DNA from: an uncultured Candidatus Melainabacteria bacterium
GTDB lineage: Bacteria > Cyanobacteriota > Vampirovibrionia > Gastranaerophilales > Gastranaerophilaceae
Assembly (NCBI GenBank): GCA_934747325.1
Contig: CAKVGW010000039.1
Span: forward strand, 1 to 17,781
Direction of reading: 5' to 3'
Length of the DNA stretch: 17,781 nt
In this document: positions 4,117 through 17,781 of the stretch, one piece after another
Layout of the letters: each line of letters begins with the position of its first letter
How positions within the stretch are numbered: the first letter of the stretch is position 1
Program-made: the position numbers and the translations under genes
The notes under the pieces: model-generated
Seen by the model: the letters and a program-made list of their open reading frames with translations, nothing else
Database searches by the model: none
Told to the model about the DNA's origin: nothing

Positions 4117-4599
4117 ATGAAAAAAGTTGCAATTATATATTCAGAATACACACCTGTAATTGATGCAATAATCAGTTATTTGAAAGGTTTTGAGGTTCAA
4201 ATTTTTGATTTGTATACTAAAGAATTAAATGACTTTGATTTGATTGTGAATATAAATTATAAAAATGAAATTCCTGAAAATCACATTAATGTTCATTATT
4301 CGCTTTTACCCGCTTTTCAGGATGAAGAACCTGTTAAGCAAGCATTTTTAGCGGGTGTAAAAGTAACAGGCATTACTTTTTATTATACAAAACCTCAAAG
4401 AATTATTGCTCAATATCCTATTTTTATCTCCAATTTTTCTCATTATGATGATGTTGAGCGTGAGTTGCAATATTTGGAACAAACAATTTATCCTTTAATT
4501 TTGGAAAAAATTCTAAATAATGAACCGTTTGAAATAAGGCAGTTGTTGTCACAAGGATGCTCCGGAAACTGTGGAGGCTGTAGCTCTTGCAAACATTAA
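4117..4599 (+). CDS. PurN-like formyltransferase relative with Cys-rich tail
   Basis: This 160-residue protein aligns with the second half of glycinamide ribonucleotide formyltransferase (PurN). NVHYSLLPAF at 58-67 matches the folate-site NIHPSLLP segment, keeping the catalytic Asn and His (N58, H60). VKVTGITFYY and EQTIYPLILEKIL match later family segments. It is shorter than PurN (about 200) because the N-terminal phosphate-loop region is reduced. The loop that carries the catalytic Asp (D144 in E. coli PurN, in DELDGG) is replaced by TKPQR, so normal activity is doubtful. The C-terminus adds C148-x3-C152-x2-C155-x2-C158-K-H, a likely metal or Fe-S site foreign to PurN. It overlaps and is probably translationally coupled to the PurD-like gene. 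Homology is fairly clear; function is unknown. Confidence 0.72.
   Translation: MKKVAIIYSEYTPVIDAIISYLKGFEVQIFDLYTKELNDFDLIVNINYKNEIPENHINVHYSLLPAFQDEEPVKQAFLAGVKVTGITFYYTKPQRIIAQYPIFISNFSHYDDVERELQYLEQTIYPLILEKILNNEPFEIRQLLSQGCSGNCGGCSSCKH
4573..4577 (+). promoter_or_regulatory. Shine-Dalgarno that fixes a TTG start
   Basis: GGAGG lies 9 nt before TTG 4587 and is embedded in the codons for the Cys-Gly-Gly-Cys part of the upstream protein's tail. It is the only strong ribosome site near the beginning of the PurD-like frame and supports TTG as its start. Confidence 0.65.
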
Positions 4600-5357
4600 A
4601 TGTATTAATAGCCGGTGAAGGAAAGTTGTTACCTTTAGTAAAAAGTTCAAAATTTTTGAAAAAACTTTATGCAACATCTGATATAGAAGGGGCTGTAAAT
4701 GTTAAATTTAATACGTTTGCAGAATTAGCAAAAAAATGTAAGGCTTTGCAAATTGATGTTGTGTTAGTTGAAAACGAAAAATGGATTTTGCAGGGAATTG
4801 CAGATGTTTTGAGAAAAAGTTTTGTAAATTGTATTGCTCCGAATGCTTTGATTTCAGATATTTTAACGAATAGTCTTTTGTCAAGAAAATTTCTTTCAAA
4901 GTATCATATAAACATTCCTCAAAAAATGAAATACCCAAGTAAATATCCATTGCTTTTAAGGGGAAATGGATTTAAATTTAAGGCGAATTCTTTGGATGAA
5001 GTTTTGCAAGTAAAGGATTTAATTAATAAAAATTATCCGCAAGAAATTGTCGACACGACGTTTTTAGAAGAATTTATTGAAGGTGAAGTTTTTAGTGTAA
5101 CTTCTTTTTTTGATGGTAAAACGCTTAAGACTTTTTCTAAAGATTTACAGATTTTAGAATATTCCAATCTTTTAGAAAAAGCACTAAAGCAAGAAAAATT
5201 CGATTTTATTGGATTTTTCAATTCAAGATTGATTAAAAGTGAAGATAAAATTTATAATCTTGGTTTTGGCTTAAATTATGCTCAGACAGTGTTTGAGAAG
5301 GATTTTTTGTTTGTCGTATATTGCGGAATTTATCAAAAATTAAATGAACTTAACTAA
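4587..5357 (+). CDS. Truncated, degenerate PurD-like (GAR synthetase) protein
   Basis: The 256-residue product follows the order of phosphoribosylamine-glycine ligase. An N-terminal NVLIAGEG (5-12) matches NVLVIGGG, a middle part runs through LLSRKFLSKYHINIP (97-111), and an ATP-grasp segment FLEEFIEGEVFSVTSFFDGK (159-178) matches the EEFLEGEE.S....DG of PurD. PurD is about 420 residues, so much of the ATP-grasp and C-terminal parts is missing. The glycine-rich KADGLAAGKG loop reads LLRGNGFKF, and the metal-binding EFN.RFGDPE near the end reads YNLGFGLNYAQ, so the Mg/ATP ligands are lost. Translation most likely begins at TTG 4587, 12 codons before which no better start exists. The frame overlaps the PurN-like gene by 13 bp, and the ATG at 4600 is out of frame. 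It is probably a non-catalytic paralogue or a new activity. Confidence 0.68.
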   Translation: MQTLNVLIAGEGKLLPLVKSSKFLKKLYATSDIEGAVNVKFNTFAELAKKCKALQIDVVLVENEKWILQGIADVLRKSFVNCIAPNALISDILTNSLLSRKFLSKYHINIPQKMKYPSKYPLLLRGNGFKFKANSLDEVLQVKDLINKNYPQEIVDTTFLEEFIEGEVFSVTSFFDGKTLKTFSKDLQILEYSNLLEKALKQEKFDFIGFFNSRLIKSEDKIYNLGFGLNYAQTVFEKDFLFVVYCGIYQKLNELN

Positions 5358-7984: not shown

Positions 7985-9553
7985 ATGACAAATGATTTTG
8001 ATTACAGATACGACAGCTGCATTTCTCGTGGGATTTGTTCAATGAATCCTCGCACATCTTCCCTTCAAGAAGTTTTGGCTTTATACTTAAAAGCTTCTGC
8101 ATATTATGCGCTTAAACTTTATGAAAACGATATTGTTGATGAAAGAATCAAGGGAATGATTTTGAATACAATTTCAATTCTTGTTTCTAATCCGCAATTT
8201 TCAGAAACAGATTTTAATGTGCTTACTCATGCTTATAATACAGAACTACCGCGCTTAATTAAAGAATACGAAGAAATGTGCAATGAAAAAGGGACAGAAC
8301 CTGAATATTTGAAAACTGTAATCAAATACAATAAAGAGCTTGATATTATTAATGCAATTCAACTTGGCGAAAAGGAATTTCTAAAGCAAGTAAAAGAGCT
8401 TTCACAAGAAACACAAGATTTATACAGAATACTTTTTGTTATTGCAAAAAGTATTTGCATTAACGTTCTAGATTTAGAAACTTTTGATATTGATTCTAAA
8501 GACGGATATTTGATGATTTTAAAAATATTAAATTCTTTGAACATAGAAGAAACAAAAGAAATGGGTTTTAAAGATTTAATAATAGAAGCTGTAGAACTTG
8601 ATAATAAACTTATGAAGCTTCTCAGAAACTCTCAGGAAAAACGTTACGGAAAACAACGCGTAAATGACGTATCTTATACAACAACTCCTGCAAAGGCTAT
8701 TTTGGTAGTAGGTTCAAATATTCGTGAATTGGAAGATGTTTTAGAAGCGGTAAAGGACAAAAACATTGATGTTTATACTCACGATGAAATGATGATTGCG
8801 CATACTTTTCCAAAATTTAGTGAGTATAAAAATTTAAAAGGACAATATGGTCAGGGAATTGAAAACTGTCTTTTGGATTTTGCAACTTTTCCGGGACCGA
8901 TTATTTTAACTCGTCATTCTCTTTATAATATAGAACATCTTTATAGAGGCTTGCTTTATACTACGGACTTCGCGTCTTCAAAAGGTGTAATTCCCATAAA
9001 GAATAAAGATTTTTCTAATGTTATAAAAGCTGCAGAAGATGCAAAAGGTTTTAAAACCGGCAAACAATGTGAAACTGTTTCAATAGGTTATGATTATCAT
9101 AATTCAATGGGAATTATTGAAGAAAAATTGAGTCAAAAAGATTATTCGCATATTTTTATTATTGGTTTGAATGGTTATACTTTAGAACAACAAACTTATT
9201 TTGACAAATTATTAAAACAAACGCCTGATGATGTTTTGATTATTTCACTTTCTTATTGTACACAAAAAGAGAATGTTGTTTGTTTAAACGCTTGCTTTGA
9301 CGTTTTTGCGACGGTTGAATTTGCAGAAGGTTTGTCTGAAAAATATTCAATACCGATTAGTGTATTTTATCCAAAATGCGACAGACATACGATTTCTCAA
9401 ATGATATATTTGAGAGAAAAATTTGATATTGAAGTTTTTATCGGAAAATGTACACCAATTATCCTTAATCCAAATCTTATAAATACTTTAAATAGTGTGT
9501 TTAAAATACAGGAACTTACTTCTGTAAAAAAAGATTTGAGCAAAATTTTATAA
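7985..9553 (+). CDS. Hybrid-cluster-protein (Hcp/prismane) homologue lacking most cluster ligands
   Basis: The 522-residue length and segment order match hybrid cluster protein, a cytoplasmic hydroxylamine/NO reductase of anaerobes. VYTHDEMMIAH (263-273), YGQGIENCLLDFATFPGPIILT (288-309) and the C-terminal part align well with E. coli Hcp. Comparison from memory shows the N-terminal CxxC is absent, leaving only C12 and C18. The hybrid-cluster His is N245, Glu268 is kept, the first cluster Cys is S312, the persulfide Cys is N396, C425 and C437 probably remain, and the last Glu is in a PKCDR context (C465/D466). An in-frame stop at 7964 and no other start codon exclude a longer N-terminus. The hybrid cluster probably cannot form as in Hcp. 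The frame is otherwise intact, so it is a conserved paralogue rather than a decaying gene. Confidence 0.8.
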   Translation: MTNDFDYRYDSCISRGICSMNPRTSSLQEVLALYLKASAYYALKLYENDIVDERIKGMILNTISILVSNPQFSETDFNVLTHAYNTELPRLIKEYEEMCNEKGTEPEYLKTVIKYNKELDIINAIQLGEKEFLKQVKELSQETQDLYRILFVIAKSICINVLDLETFDIDSKDGYLMILKILNSLNIEETKEMGFKDLIIEAVELDNKLMKLLRNSQEKRYGKQRVNDVSYTTTPAKAILVVGSNIRELEDVLEAVKDKNIDVYTHDEMMIAHTFPKFSEYKNLKGQYGQGIENCLLDFATFPGPIILTRHSLYNIEHLYRGLLYTTDFASSKGVIPIKNKDFSNVIKAAEDAKGFKTGKQCETVSIGYDYHNSMGIIEEKLSQKDYSHIFIIGLNGYTLEQQTYFDKLLKQTPDDVLIISLSYCTQKENVVCLNACFDVFATVEFAEGLSEKYSIPISVFYPKCDRHTISQMIYLREKFDIEVFIGKCTPIILNPNLINTLNSVFKIQELTSVKKDLSKIL

Positions 9554-12360: not shown

Positions 12361-15300
12361 TTAATCACCAAAGACAATAAACGGTAAGTCACGTTCTTTT
12401 GCATATTCTTTTAAGAAATGTGTTTTATTATCTACATTATTTAAGAAATCAATAGGCTGTCCGACTTTATCAGACTCACTGTAAGCAAAGACACCCATTA
12501 CTTGTGGGTTAGAACCGTACATTTCATTGTACTCTCTATTGCCTTTTCTTACATTTGAATTTATTGTTGCAAATTTTTGTATGATTTTTTCTCGGATTTC
12601 TGCAGGTTCAATTTCTAACATGGATTTATTTTCATTCTCTTTTACAAATTGAACATATTCAGCATCGCTCATGCCGGTTGCTTCTTTTACCAAGTTTGAA
12701 ATATACAATCTGTCGGATTCTCTTGCTCCGCCAAAGATATAACGGTCTTTAAATTCTTGAATATTTTTACCGCAGCCTGAACCTGAATCTGTATTACCAC
12801 CGCCATATACATATTTCGTAGGAATATCCAGCAATACACCTTGAGATCTAAAGAATCTGTATTTGCTTTCAGGACGTTCTGCGTAGCTTACTGATAACAA
12901 TGCGTCAGAATCTACAAGTGAGAATGCATCAAATTTTGCTAATTGGTTTGAATGATCTAAACCATGAACAAAGAAGTGAATGTTACCTGTTTCAACATCT
13001 GTTTCTGCTCCATTATTATTAAGACCTTTGGCTTTTACACCTTTAGCTGATGTGCCTTTAGGGAAACCAATTGCTTCCCAGCTTTCGTCTGTCATTTCGT
13101 TGAATTTAATAACAACAACACCATCTTTATCCTGATAAACACCTTTTAAGTTAGTACTGCCATCAGCGTTTACTGTTGTAATAGCTTGTTTCATTCTGCT
13201 TGCTTGTGGAAATTTTGTAACAGGCAAAATTGGTTGAGATTTTTGCAATTCTTTTTGATATTCTTTAATTTTTGCAACATAAACATCCGCAGACTCTCCA
13301 AAACTGCGAACATTACCGTTAAAATCAACTCTTGATTTGCCAACCTTTGTATCGTGGAAAGAATCATCAGCTTTTACTGCTCTTAAATCTGCATGTGTAA
13401 ATATTTCTGCCATATCAACAAGATTATCTTGTTGCAAATCAAAAGCAACTGATTGCAAACGTTTTGTTAATTCACCTTCTGATTTAGAAGTATTAACAAA
13501 ATTTAACCATTCATGGTATTTGCAAATTTTATATAGTTTTGTTTCTTCTTCAGAAGTCAAATTAAATTTCTTAGAAATAAAGAATACATCAAATGCTCCG
13601 TTTTCAGCATGATAACCATCAGGATGCCCTTCTGCCTTAGTTATATCATGCATTAAAGATGCTAGTAGCATAACTTTTTTATCAGATTCATTTAGTTTTA
13701 CAAATTTAGGGTCTTGTGAAATTTTTTGCATAACTTTTAGAGAATGTTTCATTACATCATAATCATGAGCACCACGAGTGCCGTTATTACCATGTTGGGC
13801 TTTGCCAATCATAGTTCGGATTTCAGGCAAAACTTCAACAATTTCATTTAAGAATTGTTCAACTTGTGGATTTTCACATTTGATTCTATTGTTTTTAGAA
13901 AATTTAACAACGTCATTTCTCAAGCTTTCTACAACTGCTTTTGTTTTAACATCACTGATTTCAGCCAACTTATGACCATTATTTAGATTTACGGGATAAC
14001 CATATAATGTGTAACCTGTTTTGTTTGTATCGTTTTTAAGTAGTTCAAAGCCGTAATAGTCAAAAACTTTTTGTCTTTCAGTTTCCGACAAATCTTTAGT
14101 TTTTTCAAGAACAGTATTGATAAAATCTTCTCTTGAGTATTCTTGAGAAATGCTAAATTTTGTAAAATCTTTATCAGAAATTTGTGCAAGAGAATTTGCC
14201 AATTTTTTAGTTGAAGTATTGGTGTTTTTAATTTGTTCTGTACTCAATTTATTAGTTTCAATACCTAACGAACGAACAAGTGATGGTAATAGTTCACAAT
14301 ATTCTTCTTGGTTTCTAGGAATAAGTGGTGCCTTTTCTTTTAATTTATCGCTAATTCCAAATAAGTCAGTATTACAAGATACAAGAGTTTTTAAAATAGA
14401 ACGTTTCTGAGAAAGCGGAATTTCGTTAATATTTTCGTTGCCAATTAGTCCTGATAATTGAGAAGCAATGACAATGTCATTAGCTTCCCAATTGGCAAAT
14501 TCTGCTTTTCCTACTTTTTGTTCTAATGATTTATATTGCTCAACTGTGATTTCATTATATTTCTCTATTAAAATAGAAAGATGTTGAGGGGCTATATCAT
14601 ATTTTTTATAGTTTAAGCATAAATCGATAGCATATTGAGAATTATCAGCATCTGTGATTTGGAGAATTTCAATAATATCTTTTTTCTCAATACCATTCTT
14701 TAAACTTTTATAGATATCGCATCTCGCATCAAAAGTCTCTTTAGGCTTGCGGTCAAAAGGGTCTCTTAACAAATCATTAATGTTTTCTAATTTAAAATCA
14801 TTATCATTTAATAATAATTTTGCAAGTTTAATATTTTTATCTTTTATATATTCTGCGGTTGTTCCAATTTCAGAAATTTCTTCTGATTTATTTTTAATTA
14901 ATTTTAACATTTCGATATCCACATTAGAACATAAAATTGAAGGTAAAGAACCTTTGTCCCAACCATCTTTTATTTTTAAACTTTTAATAAAATCAATTTT
15001 TTCATTAGAAAAGCCGGATAATAATAAGTCAGCAAAATCTTTCTCACCCATAAATAATTTTTGGGGTCTAACTATTTCTGAAATATATTTAAAATCACTT
15101 TTTTCAATCTTTTTCAAATTATTTAAAATAGTTGTTAATACTTCTTTTGAATTTATATTTTTGTAGAAACTTATATTACCTAAATAAGTTACAATAGCTT
15201 CAAAATGTTCTTTAAATTCCGGATGTTTTTCAAGAAAAGCACCGGCTTCTTCTAAGAATTTTTCTTGAAATTCATTTTCTGTATATTCAATAAAATGTTT

Positions 15301-17781
15301 ATAACAATCATTATTTATATTAGATTTTAAATTACCTGTTTTATTCATAAGTTCATACTTTAAAGCAAATGTGTTACCATCACAAGTTTCAGCCAAATTT
15401 TTCAAGAACTTAGCTTCGTTTGTTGTATAATCATTTCTTTCAAAGATTTTTTCGAAAGCTTCTACGCTTTCTTTCGTCGTTAAACATTTATAAATATATA
15501 TATTGTCCCACTTTACAATTTCACTATCTTTTGTAGGGAATTTGCAATTATATTTTAAAGCAAGCTTGACTAAAGAAAGTTGTTCCGGCATTTTTGCTCG
15601 ATTTGTTTCCCTACAAATATTTTTAACATCACTTTCTCTCATGTCTTTGGCTAAATTTTCTATTACAAAATCTAGCTGCCAATCCTGTTGAATATTAGAA
15701 ACAGTCTCAGCTTCTTCCATAGAAAGCATTCTACCTAATTTTTCTTTAAAACTAGGATTGTTTAATATATCTATTATTTTATTTAGTAGTTCTGTACTAT
15801 ATAAATATTCGGTTTTACCGTCTTTAGTAGTTCTATATGCAAAATGTTCATATTCACTTTGGTCGTATTTGACACCGGTCTTATCTAAAGCAGTAAATCT
15901 TCGCAATGTTTCAGGTATTAATGTACGTACTCCATCAATATTCTCGAAACATTTATCCCATTCATATTGTTTATTTTCACTAGGATTTGTTTTCAAAAAT
16001 TCTCTAATATCATTTTTCGTTGCTTCATCAAGTTTCGGGTTTAAAAGTGTTTTTATAATATCTGTGTATGTATCATAACCTCTTTTACCATAGTAATTAG
16101 CGTTATCAAATTGTTCTTTTGTGAATAAAGCTCTATCTTCTGCCGATAGTGACATATATAAATTGTTAAATTCATAAGAGCAGTTATAATTTTGAAGTTT
16201 AAGTATATCTTTAACATCATTTACAGTTGTAATTTTTGTAAAATCAGGAATATAATTATGGCTTACATTCATTTTTTTTAATTGTGTATGTTCAAAGTAG
16301 TATTTCAACGCTTCTACTTGTTCAGGAGTGTTGATGTCATTTAAAATTTTAAGCATTGCATGGTTTTCATTGAACAAATTAGCTATATAATTGTATCTTA
16401 AAGAATTTTTTTCAAATTCCGCAATATTTTTAAATAACATTGAAACAACTTCACGTTTAGAAGCATTGTCTCCTGCTGCGTCCAAGAATAGTTTAACTTT
16501 GTTATCACCATATACACAAGCACCTGCTTCAATTCCTTGCTGAATCAATTTTATATCTTCTGGTTTTGCATTTTTATAATTATTGATAACAAAATTTAAA
16601 TTATCATAATTTAGTTTTTTCAAAACACCTTCTGAAGCAAAAATTTGTGAAATAGTTTTAGTTTCATCTTTTGAAAGTTTTGAAATTTTTTCTAAAGTAG
16701 ATGAAGAAACATTTTCTACAAATTTTAACTGTTTAGCCAATTCTTTTGGGTTATCTGTAACTTTAAAGCCATTCGGAGTTCTTTGAGCAGGAATACCACG
16801 CTCTATTCTTGCTGATTCTGTGTTGATATAATTATTAAAATCTTCTTCTTTAGATTCTAATAAATTAATCAAATCAAAGCCTTGTTCTTTAGCAGTTTTA
16901 ATATGAGAATCAATATTCTTTAAATCTTCGATTGAAATTTTTTCAGATTTGAGAATTTCAACCATTTGTTTTTCAGAAACATCAGGATTTTGAAGCATTT
17001 TTTCAAAGGCTTCTTGTTTTTCAGGATGATTTGCAATTTCATCTTTAATGACAGCACGTTCAGTTGGTGAAAATTTCTTTTCACATTCAACCATAGATTG
17101 TTCTAAAATATTTTCTACAAAATATATAACATCGTATCCTTCTAATCTTCTTTCACGAGATTTTAAGTTTTGTACTACTTTTCCAATATTATTTGGAGTA
17201 ACAAATTTTACTAAATTATTAAATCCTTCTATTTTAACCATTGGTTCTTCATTGCCATTTGGATATTTAATATTAATATCTGATAACACTTTTATAATAG
17301 TTTCAGCGTTTGGATTTTCTTTAATTAAAGCATCGATTTCTTCTTTATAATATTTTAAATTTTCTTCTCCATAAACTTCTTTTAAGGCACTATATAAATC
17401 AACACCTTTTGAATCAGTAAACCATTCAACATCTTGAGCTCTAAAAATGTAGTTACCATCTTTGTCTTTAATACTTAATAACGAATTTGCCAATTCTGAA
17501 TTGTTATTAAGAGCTTTATCAATGAGCTTTTTGTCTAAAGAATTAGAATTTTCTAATCGGCTATTGACTTCACTTGAACGCACACCGCCTTGTTCCCTCG
17601 CCCCTTGTGGGAGAGGGTTAGGTTGAGAAACATTATCGGCTTTTTCAAGTTCAGCTTTAAATTCGCTCACAACTTTCACGCACATAGCCTGATAAGCTGC
17701 GATTGCGCGTTCGGGAGATGAAAATTTTGATACGGTTTTGCCATCGTTCATATCAAATTTTAAAGTTTTGCCGTTTTCTTG
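12361..17781 (-). CDS. Giant helical protein with HD phosphohydrolase domain, 5' partial
   Basis: An uninterrupted minus-strand frame runs from the right edge (no stop before base 17781) to a TAA at 12361-12363. ATG 17751 is only the first Met in view, so the true N-terminus probably lies outside. Numbered from that Met there are 1796 residues. About 1-1270 are mainly alpha-helical and Asn/Lys/Glu-rich, like a solenoid, with no signal peptide seen in this part. An HD domain follows: H1336 in HDYDVMKH, H1368-D1369 in LMHDITKAEGH, H1413 and D1455 in THADLRA, fitting a metal-dependent phosphohydrolase. Residues 1515-1796 form an unidentified globular domain (GGGNTDSGSGCGKN with C1660, and HFFVHGLDH upstream). 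Size and modular shape suggest a large effector or nucleotide-signalling protein, but this is inference. It converges on macA with 6 bp between stops. Confidence 0.85.
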   Translation of the reverse strand, partial: QENGKTLKFDMNDGKTVSKFSSPERAIAAYQAMCVKVVSEFKAELEKADNVSQPNPLPQGAREQGGVRSSEVNSRLENSNSLDKKLIDKALNNNSELANSLLSIKDKDGNYIFRAQDVEWFTDSKGVDLYSALKEVYGEENLKYYKEEIDALIKENPNAETIIKVLSDINIKYPNGNEEPMVKIEGFNNLVKFVTPNNIGKVVQNLKSRERRLEGYDVIYFVENILEQSMVECEKKFSPTERAVIKDEIANHPEKQEAFEKMLQNPDVSEKQMVEILKSEKISIEDLKNIDSHIKTAKEQGFDLINLLESKEEDFNNYINTESARIERGIPAQRTPNGFKVTDNPKELAKQLKFVENVSSSTLEKISKLSKDETKTISQIFASEGVLKKLNYDNLNFVINNYKNAKPEDIKLIQQGIEAGACVYGDNKVKLFLDAAGDNASKREVVSMLFKNIAEFEKNSLRYNYIANLFNENHAMLKILNDINTPEQVEALKYYFEHTQLKKMNVSHNYIPDFTKITTVNDVKDILKLQNYNCSYEFNNLYMSLSAEDRALFTKEQFDNANYYGKRGYDTYTDIIKTLLNPKLDEATKNDIREFLKTNPSENKQYEWDKCFENIDGVRTLIPETLRRFTALDKTGVKYDQSEYEHFAYRTTKDGKTEYLYSTELLNKIIDILNNPSFKEKLGRMLSMEEAETVSNIQQDWQLDFVIENLAKDMRESDVKNICRETNRAKMPEQLSLVKLALKYNCKFPTKDSEIVKWDNIYIYKCLTTKESVEAFEKIFERNDYTTNEAKFLKNLAETCDGNTFALKYELMNKTGNLKSNINNDCYKHFIEYTENEFQEKFLEEAGAFLEKHPEFKEHFEAIVTYLGNISFYKNINSKEVLTTILNNLKKIEKSDFKYISEIVRPQKLFMGEKDFADLLLSGFSNEKIDFIKSLKIKDGWDKGSLPSILCSNVDIEMLKLIKNKSEEISEIGTTAEYIKDKNIKLAKLLLNDNDFKLENINDLLRDPFDRKPKETFDARCDIYKSLKNGIEKKDIIEILQITDADNSQYAIDLCLNYKKYDIAPQHLSILIEKYNEITVEQYKSLEQKVGKAEFANWEANDIVIASQLSGLIGNENINEIPLSQKRSILKTLVSCNTDLFGISDKLKEKAPLIPRNQEEYCELLPSLVRSLGIETNKLSTEQIKNTNTSTKKLANSLAQISDKDFTKFSISQEYSREDFINTVLEKTKDLSETERQKVFDYYGFELLKNDTNKTGYTLYGYPVNLNNGHKLAEISDVKTKAVVESLRNDVVKFSKNNRIKCENPQVEQFLNEIVEVLPEIRTMIGKAQHGNNGTRGAHDYDVMKHSLKVMQKISQDPKFVKLNESDKKVMLLASLMHDITKAEGHPDGYHAENGAFDVFFISKKFNLTSEEETKLYKICKYHEWLNFVNTSKSEGELTKRLQSVAFDLQQDNLVDMAEIFTHADLRAVKADDSFHDTKVGKSRVDFNGNVRSFGESADVYVAKIKEYQKELQKSQPILPVTKFPQASRMKQAITTVNADGSTNLKGVYQDKDGVVVIKFNEMTDESWEAIGFPKGTSAKGVKAKGLNNNGAETDVETGNIHFFVHGLDHSNQLAKFDAFSLVDSDALLSVSYAERPESKYRFFRSQGVLLDIPTKYVYGGGNTDSGSGCGKNIQEFKDRYIFGGARESDRLYISNLVKEATGMSDAEYVQFVKENENKSMLEIEPAEIREKIIQKFATINSNVRKGNREYNEMYGSNPQVMGVFAYSESDKVGQPIDFLNNVDNKTHFLKEYAKERDLPFIVFGD
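17595..17617. repeat. GC-rich palindromic element inside giant ORF
   Basis: CCCTCGCCC (17595-17603) pairs, with one mismatch, with GGGAGAGGG (17609-17617) around a short CTTGT loop. It is far richer in G and C than its surroundings. On the coding strand it reads NPLPQGAREQ in frame. It resembles dispersed palindromic elements (of the CCCTCTCCC...GGGAGAGGG kind) that insert in bacterial genomes, sometimes in coding sequence as with Rickettsia palindromic elements. Confidence 0.55.

What the first reader, a model, noticed from the sequence alone, without database searches (positions are those of the whole stretch)
4117..5357. Coupled PurN-like and PurD-like pair with lost catalytic residues and a new Cys tail
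Two neighbouring enzymes of the purine pathway appear together as shortened, divergent copies. The PurN-like one keeps Asn-Val-His but not the catalytic Asp and gains a C-x3-C-x2-C-x2-C-K-H tail. The PurD-like one lacks the ATP-grasp glycine loop and metal ligands. Both frames are intact and overlapping, so they seem maintained. They could be a regulatory pair, a scaffold for purine enzymes, or enzymes with a new substrate and a metal site.
Basis: partly seen in the sequence, partly recalled or inferred. Interest (0 to 1): 0.7.

Follow-up and report, generated by a model that had tools for sequence, protein, structure and literature searches.

The report
Dead purine enzymes with cysteine tail
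Two overlapping bacterial genes make shrunken, apparently inactive versions of two purine-making enzymes, one of which gained a metal-binding-looking cysteine tail before it lost its active site; relatives show the purine pathway fading while several of its proteins are kept, probably for some other job.

Summary
Window 4117-4599 encodes a 160-aa PurN fold and 4587-5357 a 256-aa PurD fold, overlapping by 13 bases; both lack catalytic features. They are a conserved family: 221 and 81 homologues. In one order of small-genome bacteria, 91 of 192 genomes hold a PurN-like match running into the cysteine-tail columns. Relatives give a graded series: purine operon with full PurN and PurD; full PurN with a Cys tail; tailed PurN plus shortened PurD; then the window's form. 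The tail appeared before catalysis was lost and outlives it. In 23 genomes with advanced forms, purL and purC gave no match and purF, purM and PurN none above cut-off; all 23 keep a PurH-type and 22 a second PurD-type match, degenerate where read. Low dN/dS in relatives indicates selection. So these are probably exapted pseudoenzymes. The tail spacing equals that of synthetic [4Fe-4S] peptide maquettes but varies in distant relatives; metal binding is a prediction and function is inferred.

The parts
4117..4599 (+). purN': 160-aa PurN-fold pseudoenzyme with C-terminal Cys tail
   Evidence: 221 homologues
4288..4296 (+). Asn58-Val59-His60, remnant of the PurN catalytic Asn and His
   Evidence: alignment; Asn kept in 46 of 118, His in 112 of 118 homologues
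4558..4596 (+). Cys tail C148-x3-C152-x2-C155-x2-C158-K-H160; low confidence in the model (pLDDT below 50)
4587..4599 (+). 13-base overlap of purN' end and purD' start (TTG), likely translational coupling
   Evidence: frames also overlap in L001, L072, L073, L076, L077, L078, taking the first possible start of each frame
4587..5357 (+). purD': 256-aa PurD-fold pseudoenzyme (N domain plus reduced ATP-grasp; no C domain, glycine loop or metal ligands)
   Evidence: 81 homologues

Best explanation
purN'-purD' is the surviving, repurposed 3' piece of a purine operon (purS-Q-L-F-M-N-D). In an ancestor, PurN gained a C-terminal Cys-rich tail while it still had its full active site. The purine pathway was then lost piece by piece, PurD lost its ATP-grasp catalysis, and PurN lost its catalytic Asp loop and substrate phosphate loop. 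The folds, the translational coupling and the tail were kept by selection. Most likely the PurN fold is now a platform that presents a Cys3-4 site binding a metal or a [4Fe-4S] cluster, and PurD' is its structural partner (inferred from the overlap and from PurN-PurD fusion proteins in relatives). The pair would act without catalysis, as a metal-, redox- or nucleotide-sensing or carrier complex in an anaerobe that must take up purines. Shown by calculation: homology, folds, loss of motifs, order of events, purifying selection in relatives, absence of most of the pathway in relatives. Inferred: metal binding, complex formation, sensing or carrier role, anaerobic lifestyle, purine uptake.
For: Graded series in one order. 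The Cys tail is absent from the 5 unfused of 8 class A PurN (in the other 3 the PurN domain runs straight into PurD), present together with Asn, His and the Asp loop in L094 and in 5 of 5 class B, and present (at least 3 Cys in the last 25 residues) in 38 of 38 loci of classes T, B, C, E and D read, while the Asp loop falls from 8 of 8 (A) to 0 of 7 (D). PurD metal motif: 9 of 9 (A/T), 5 of 5 (B), 0 of 4 (C), 0 of 13 (D). Tree of 51 rows: D is one clade (100/100) inside a supported E+D group (99/99). In 23 genomes of classes C, D and E: purL 0, purC 0, purF only hits to the first 199-225 positions in 612-635 aa frames, purM none above cut-off. Purifying selection in relatives: dN/dS about 0.04-0.15 in the closest pairs, including class C PurN (L106-L107 0.123/1.11), whose genomes gave no purL or purM match, and class D PurD' (L076-L077 0.176/2.0). 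PurN-PurD fusions of 570-579 aa in L095, L096, L098. The tail spacing 3-2-2 in 102 of 118 close relatives is that of the [4Fe4S] maquettes in PMC10946529, including glycine-rich versions that formed 19-40% as much reduced cluster as the parent peptide (passages read).
Against: Outside the close family the Cys spacing varies (3-2-2 in 7 of 38 loci, C-x2-C-x2-C in 22 of 38), while the same paper says maquette spacing is immutable for cluster formation, so a conserved [4Fe-4S] site is doubtful and Zn, Cu or a thiol role is as open. The loci were found with a profile that includes the tail, which favours tailed members. The two proteins are not always kept together: 13 of 14 class E loci and 7 of 11 class C loci read have PurN' without a detected PurD', and L074, L075, L079-L082 have PurD' without PurN' beside it and none detected elsewhere in those six genomes. 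Six of the 91 tail-reaching matches contain a stop codon: in three that I read (L072, L126, L135) the frame still runs to a Cys tail; G111 (117-aa frame), G118 and G135 were not read. No whole genome is held for the window, so absence of the pathway is shown in relatives only and their completeness is not told. purC is also missing from G092 and G125 (class A) and G018 (T), and purF from G018, so absence of a profile match is not by itself proof of a lost pathway stage. For the window's class PurN' the only finite ratio shown is 0.347/1.09, near saturation.
Confidence: 0.6

Rival explanations
1. Slow decay: the genes are leftovers under weak selection on their way to loss, with no new function.
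For: Patchy retention: PurN' is missing in six class D genomes and PurD' in 13 of 14 class E loci read; 101 of 192 genomes have no tail-reaching PurN' match, and at least one match (G111) has a short frame with a stop.
Against: dN/dS about 0.04-0.15 in the closest pairs of relatives, although dS is above 1 in all of them; intact frames in the class D relatives read at about 50-60% identity; the tail is a gained feature kept in 38 of 38 loci.
Confidence: 0.13
2. New enzyme: the pair has a new catalytic activity, with the Cys tail as a catalytic or carrier thiol/metal site and PurD' as a nucleotide-binding subunit.
For: PurN keeps Asn, His and the Asp loop in 4 of 4 class B and 4 of 4 class C genomes that were both read and found without purF above cut-off and without purC, so a changed substrate was possible at that stage; His60 is kept in 112 of 118.
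Against: In the window's class the Asp loop, the phosphate loop, the GKG loop and the metal ligands are all gone, and no neighbouring gene constant across classes suggests a pathway.
Confidence: 0.15
3. Purine or folate sensor: the degenerate folds still bind a purine-pathway intermediate, nucleotide or folate and regulate uptake, the tail being a zinc knuckle for protein or RNA contact.
For: Several proteins of the same pathway (PurN', PurD', a second PurD-like, a PurH-type domain) are kept in genomes without most of the pathway.
Against: Ligand-binding residues are largely replaced; the models show no part beyond the two enzyme folds and the tail; I recognised no purine uptake gene beside the pair, but most neighbours were not scanned.
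Confidence: 0.12

Closest known systems
PurN, phosphoribosylglycinamide formyltransferase (PF00551 / TIGR00639)
   Same: Fold, His and in the window Asn of the active site, HxSLLPxF core, purN-purD gene order
   Different: About 40 residues shorter than class A/B forms, no Asp loop, no GSGxGSN loop, Cys3-4 tail, no pathway around it
PurD, glycinamide ribonucleotide synthetase (GARS_N/GARS_A / TIGR00877)
   Same: N domain and ATP-grasp fold
   Different: No C domain, glycine loop, lid or metal ligands; 256 against 410-439 aa in unfused class A/T
[4Fe-4S] ferredoxin peptide maquettes (PMC10946529, passages read)
   Same: Identical Cys spacing C-x3-C-x2-C-x2-C with Gly, Ser, Asn between
   Different: Natural tail on a PurN fold; cluster binding untested; spacing not constant in distant relatives
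Class II ribonucleotide reductase Cys-rich zinc finger (PMC5704485, search listing and start of abstract only)
   Same: Cys-rich site on an enzyme of nucleotide metabolism
   Different: There it serves catalysis; here the enzyme body looks dead and is unrelated

Membership tests
PurN (TIGR00639) | Score above curated cut-off 150.1 bits | tested here: not met
   37.6 bits
PurN (TIGR00639) | Catalytic Asn, His and Asp (triad recalled from E. coli PurN) | tested here: not met
   Asn and His present, Asp loop absent in the window; 0 of 117 homologues with the segment found have a D-x-G type loop
PurN (TIGR00639) | Formyltransferase Rossmann fold | tested here: met
PurD (TIGR00877) | Score above curated cut-off 288 bits | tested here: not met
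   39.2 bits
PurD (TIGR00877) | GKG ATP loop and E-x-N-x-R...GDPE metal site | tested here: not met
   0 of 13 class D, against 9 of 9 class A/T for the metal site and 8 of 9 for the loop pattern
PurD (TIGR00877) | PurD N domain and ATP-grasp fold | tested here: met
[4Fe-4S] maquette-type site | Cys spacing C-x3-C-x2-C-x2-C | tested here: met
   window and 102 of 118 close homologues, but only 7 of 38 wider loci
[4Fe-4S] maquette-type site | Cluster binding | not testable with these tools
   needs protein chemistry
Anti-phage defence proteins (PADLOC) | Match to a PADLOC model | tested here: not met
   no match at E 0.01 for either protein

The most novel reading that the evidence does not exclude
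A whole biosynthetic pathway has been turned into a set of non-catalytic proteins. After an order of gut-type bacteria lost purine synthesis, PurN', PurD', a second PurD-like protein and the PurH formyltransferase domain were kept as dead enzymes under selection, perhaps as one complex, and PurN' evolved a natural counterpart of the synthetic [4Fe-4S] maquette as its working part.
Probability: 0.3. Interest if true: 0.85.

Novelty: new variant of a known kind. Interest (0 to 1): 0.62.

Why it matters
Pseudoenzymes are usually met one by one (general knowledge); here many steps of the conversion can be read in living relatives: operon with full enzymes, tailed full enzyme, half-degraded pair, degraded pair. 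That lets one ask why dead enzymes of a lost pathway are kept, and tests whether a gained metal site can take over from an active site. It also warns that PurD- and PurH-like annotations in these genomes need not mean purine synthesis.

Tried and rejected
Considered and rejected: chance open frames (221 and 81 homologues); recent pseudogenes (intact frames and low dN/dS in relatives); phage or defence origin (PADLOC no match; PHROGs gave a PurN family, E 1.4e-8, and a family of unknown function, E 0.0035); extra copies beside a working pathway.

Led nowhere: organism names for the window (TsaD search, no names in the 120 listed; L001 is titled only 'Bacterium isolate RGIG4998 Roe_deer_Rumen-5'). 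The order is unnamed. A phylum-mate (G207) has an ABC transporter whose four best-ranked plasmid matches, of six shown, are Nostoc, Planktothrix, Gloeothece and Gloeocapsa, so the phylum is probably Cyanobacteriota; that the order is Gastranaerophilales is recall, not tested. Literature: seven subject searches showed nothing on these proteins in the rows listed, which were 10 of 46, 3 of 3, 1 of 1, 1 of 1, 6 of 9, 6 of 35 and 0 of 0; eLife 2013 (PMC3787301) has no 'purine', 'purN' or 'purD' in its main text (term search only). Gene neighbours are not constant across classes. Promoter-like sites do not exceed shuffles (11 against 10.5); two terminator-like sites (0.6 expected) both lie inside purD'.

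Limits of counts: only 120 of 221 PurN' homologues are listed, of which two under 150 aa were dropped (118 used); 72 of 81 PurD' homologues are at least 240 aa. A1 has the window plus 43 of the 120, A2 the window plus 46 of the 81, chosen by hand for spread. Classes A, T, B, C, D, E are my own labels and their loci were chosen by hand. A first regular expression for the Asp loop was too strict and was replaced by reading the segments. 'GKG' occurs in 26 of 72 PurD' homologues; in the rows that show it (P0122, P0127, P0131, P0141, P0151) it reads RGKGF, at the place where class A has K-A-D-G, before the real loop. dN/dS rows printed are the six closest pairs of each family (of 231, 171, 21 and 6 pairs) plus window pairs.

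Full report

The family. A search of 5.8 billion proteins found 221 PurN' and 81 PurD' homologues. In 118 PurN' relatives of at least 150 aa (of 120 listed), His is kept in 112 and Asn in 46, and none of the 117 with a recognisable segment has the Asp loop. Cys is 16.0% of the last 25 residues against 1.2% of the rest; 107 of 118 have C-x2-C-x2-C and 102 of 118 have C-x3-C-x2-C-x2-C. No PurD' relative of at least 240 aa (0 of 72) has the E-x-N-x-R or GDPE metal motif.

The graded series. One public contig carries the pair (L001), and its genome, G001, served as the centre for a search of its order. Of 192 genomes of that order (1.3-3.1 Mb), 91 have a PurN'-type match that runs into the tail columns (E 8.7e-24 or better), and 2 more (G003, G010) have canonical PurN matches that stop before the tail. 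Six of the 91 carry a stop inside the match; in the three read (L072, L126, L135) the frame still runs to a Cys tail, while G111 (117-aa frame), G118 and G135 were not read. Twelve genomes have a window-type PurD' (E 7.5e-64 or better). Reading loci across the order gives these stages. Class A: genes of the lengths and order expected of purS-purQ-purL-purF-purM-purN-purD in L092, L093 and L097 (purL, purF, purM confirmed by profile; purQ and purS by length only), with full PurN (Asn, His and Asp loop in 8 of 8 class A rows) and full PurD; three loci have PurN and PurD fused. Stage T (L094): full PurN with triad plus Cys tail, PurD of 413 aa with its motifs; purF is missing from this genome by profile. 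Class B (5 loci): tailed PurN with triad, PurD of 362-378 aa with loop and metal site intact. Class C (11 loci): tailed PurN of 194-216 aa, the Asp kept in 6 or 7 of 11 by reading; PurD' of 250-266 aa without catalytic motifs in four (L104-L107), none detected in the other seven. Class E (14 loci): PurN' of 152-181 aa with tail; no PurD' detected in 13. Class D (window and 6 more PurN' loci; 13 PurD' loci): PurN' of 158-169 aa with tail and PurD' of 256-283 aa. A maximum-likelihood tree of 51 PurN rows puts all D rows in one clade (100/100), nested in an E+D group (99/99), and places L094 beside class A. The drawn root is only a midpoint; taking canonical PurN, the form shared with other bacteria, as ancestral, the tail was gained before catalysis was lost.

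The pathway is largely gone. In 23 genomes of classes C, D and E: purL 0 of 23, purC 0 of 23, purF none above cut-off, with only hits to the first 199-225 positions in 612-635 aa frames, read as GlmS by recall, and purM none above cut-off, with hits of at most 25.6 bits in 6 of 23. None of the 23 has PurN over the cut-off; 13 of 192 in the order do. Class B (4 genomes) keeps a shortened PurL in frames of 511-524 aa, one of four just over the cut-off (G114, 528.6 of 525.75 bits), read with an adjacent PurQ-like protein in L150, and PurM at 195-212 bits, under the cut-off. Against over-reading: purC matched only 2 of 34 genomes and is missing also from G092, G125 and G018, and completeness of these genomes is not told, so single absences are weak; the joint pattern is uniform.

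Other relics. All 34 genomes tested have a PurH match. In the seven class D loci read, only a 295-317 aa formyltransferase part remains, and the KH-x-NPCG and AFGG motifs are gone in 7 of 7 (L138-L143, L148); they are gone too in the class C and E copies read (L145, L146, L149). A second PurD-type match, below cut-off, is present in 22 of the 23 (not G001); the five such proteins read (410-445 aa, four of them from the 23) lack loop and metal site in 5 of 5. So several proteins of one lost pathway appear to be kept as dead enzymes.

Selection. Pairwise dN and dS: class B PurN L100-L102 0.081 and 1.79; class C PurN L106-L107 0.123 and 1.11; class D PurD' L076-L077 0.176 and 2.0; PurH-type L138-L140 0.097 and 2.58. 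Ratios are about 0.04-0.15, with dS above 1 throughout. For the window's class PurN' the one finite ratio shown is 0.347 and 1.09 (window-L078), so selection on the window genes is mainly inferred from relatives and from intact frames. In a phylum sample, 47 of 146 genomes match at 1e-14 and none of them bears a new handle (G193 and up), so the family looks restricted to this order.

Mechanism. The element gained and kept throughout is the tail (at least 3 Cys in 38 of 38 loci, though the search profile includes the tail); among 1,227 open frames of the held loci, two other frames with 4 or more Cys in the last 16 residues are short and look spurious. Its spacing in the close family equals that of peptides that assemble [4Fe4S] clusters, including glycine-rich versions with lower yield (PMC10946529, passages). 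The same paper states that the spacing is immutable, while in wider relatives it varies (3-2-2 in 7 of 38); Zn, Cu or thiol roles are therefore open. I propose a PurN-fold platform presenting a metal or cluster site, with PurD' as a structural partner, in a non-catalytic sensing or carrier role. That the two bind each other is inferred from overlap and from fusions in relatives; separate retention in class E and in six PurD'-only loci speaks against a strict need for each other.

Verdict. New variant of a known kind (pseudoenzyme exaptation), with an unusually full series of intermediates.

Noticed in passing
L138-L143, L148: PurH reduced to a formyltransferase part of 295-317 aa with catalytic motifs lost. 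It is next to a gene of 716-742 aa on the same strand in 7 of 7; in 5 of the 6 with coordinates printed it lies within 30 bases of it or overlaps (160 bases in L139). The one scanned (L138) is a transglycosylase/transpeptidase.
   Followed up: partly
L112-L116: Stand-alone 410-445 aa PurD-like protein without loop and metal motifs; the upstream gene in L114 reads like RuvC (recalled, not scanned).
   Followed up: partly
L150 3312-5394: A class B genome keeps shortened PurL (505 aa) next to a 196-aa PurQ-like protein although purC has no match and purF none above cut-off.
   Followed up: partly
L095, L096, L098: PurN-PurD fusion proteins of 570-579 aa.
   Followed up: partly
window 7985-9553: Divergent hybrid-cluster (Hcp-like) protein, 205 of 360.8 bits, alignment starting at profile position 13; the same family lies about 1.6-4.8 kb from the pair in L001, L073, L075, L078, L079 (2.6 kb in the window).
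   Followed up: partly
L001, L072, L073, L075, L078, L080: A conserved 628-649 aa protein near the pair; the two copies scanned (L073, L075) have no NCBIfam match.
   Followed up: no
L102, L103, L105, L106 (classes B and C): birA, oadA, oadB upstream and glgC downstream of the purN'-purD' remnant (with purM' in L102, L103); functions named from the L106 copies.
   Followed up: no
window 12361-17751: A 1,796-aa minus-strand frame, not scanned.
   Followed up: no
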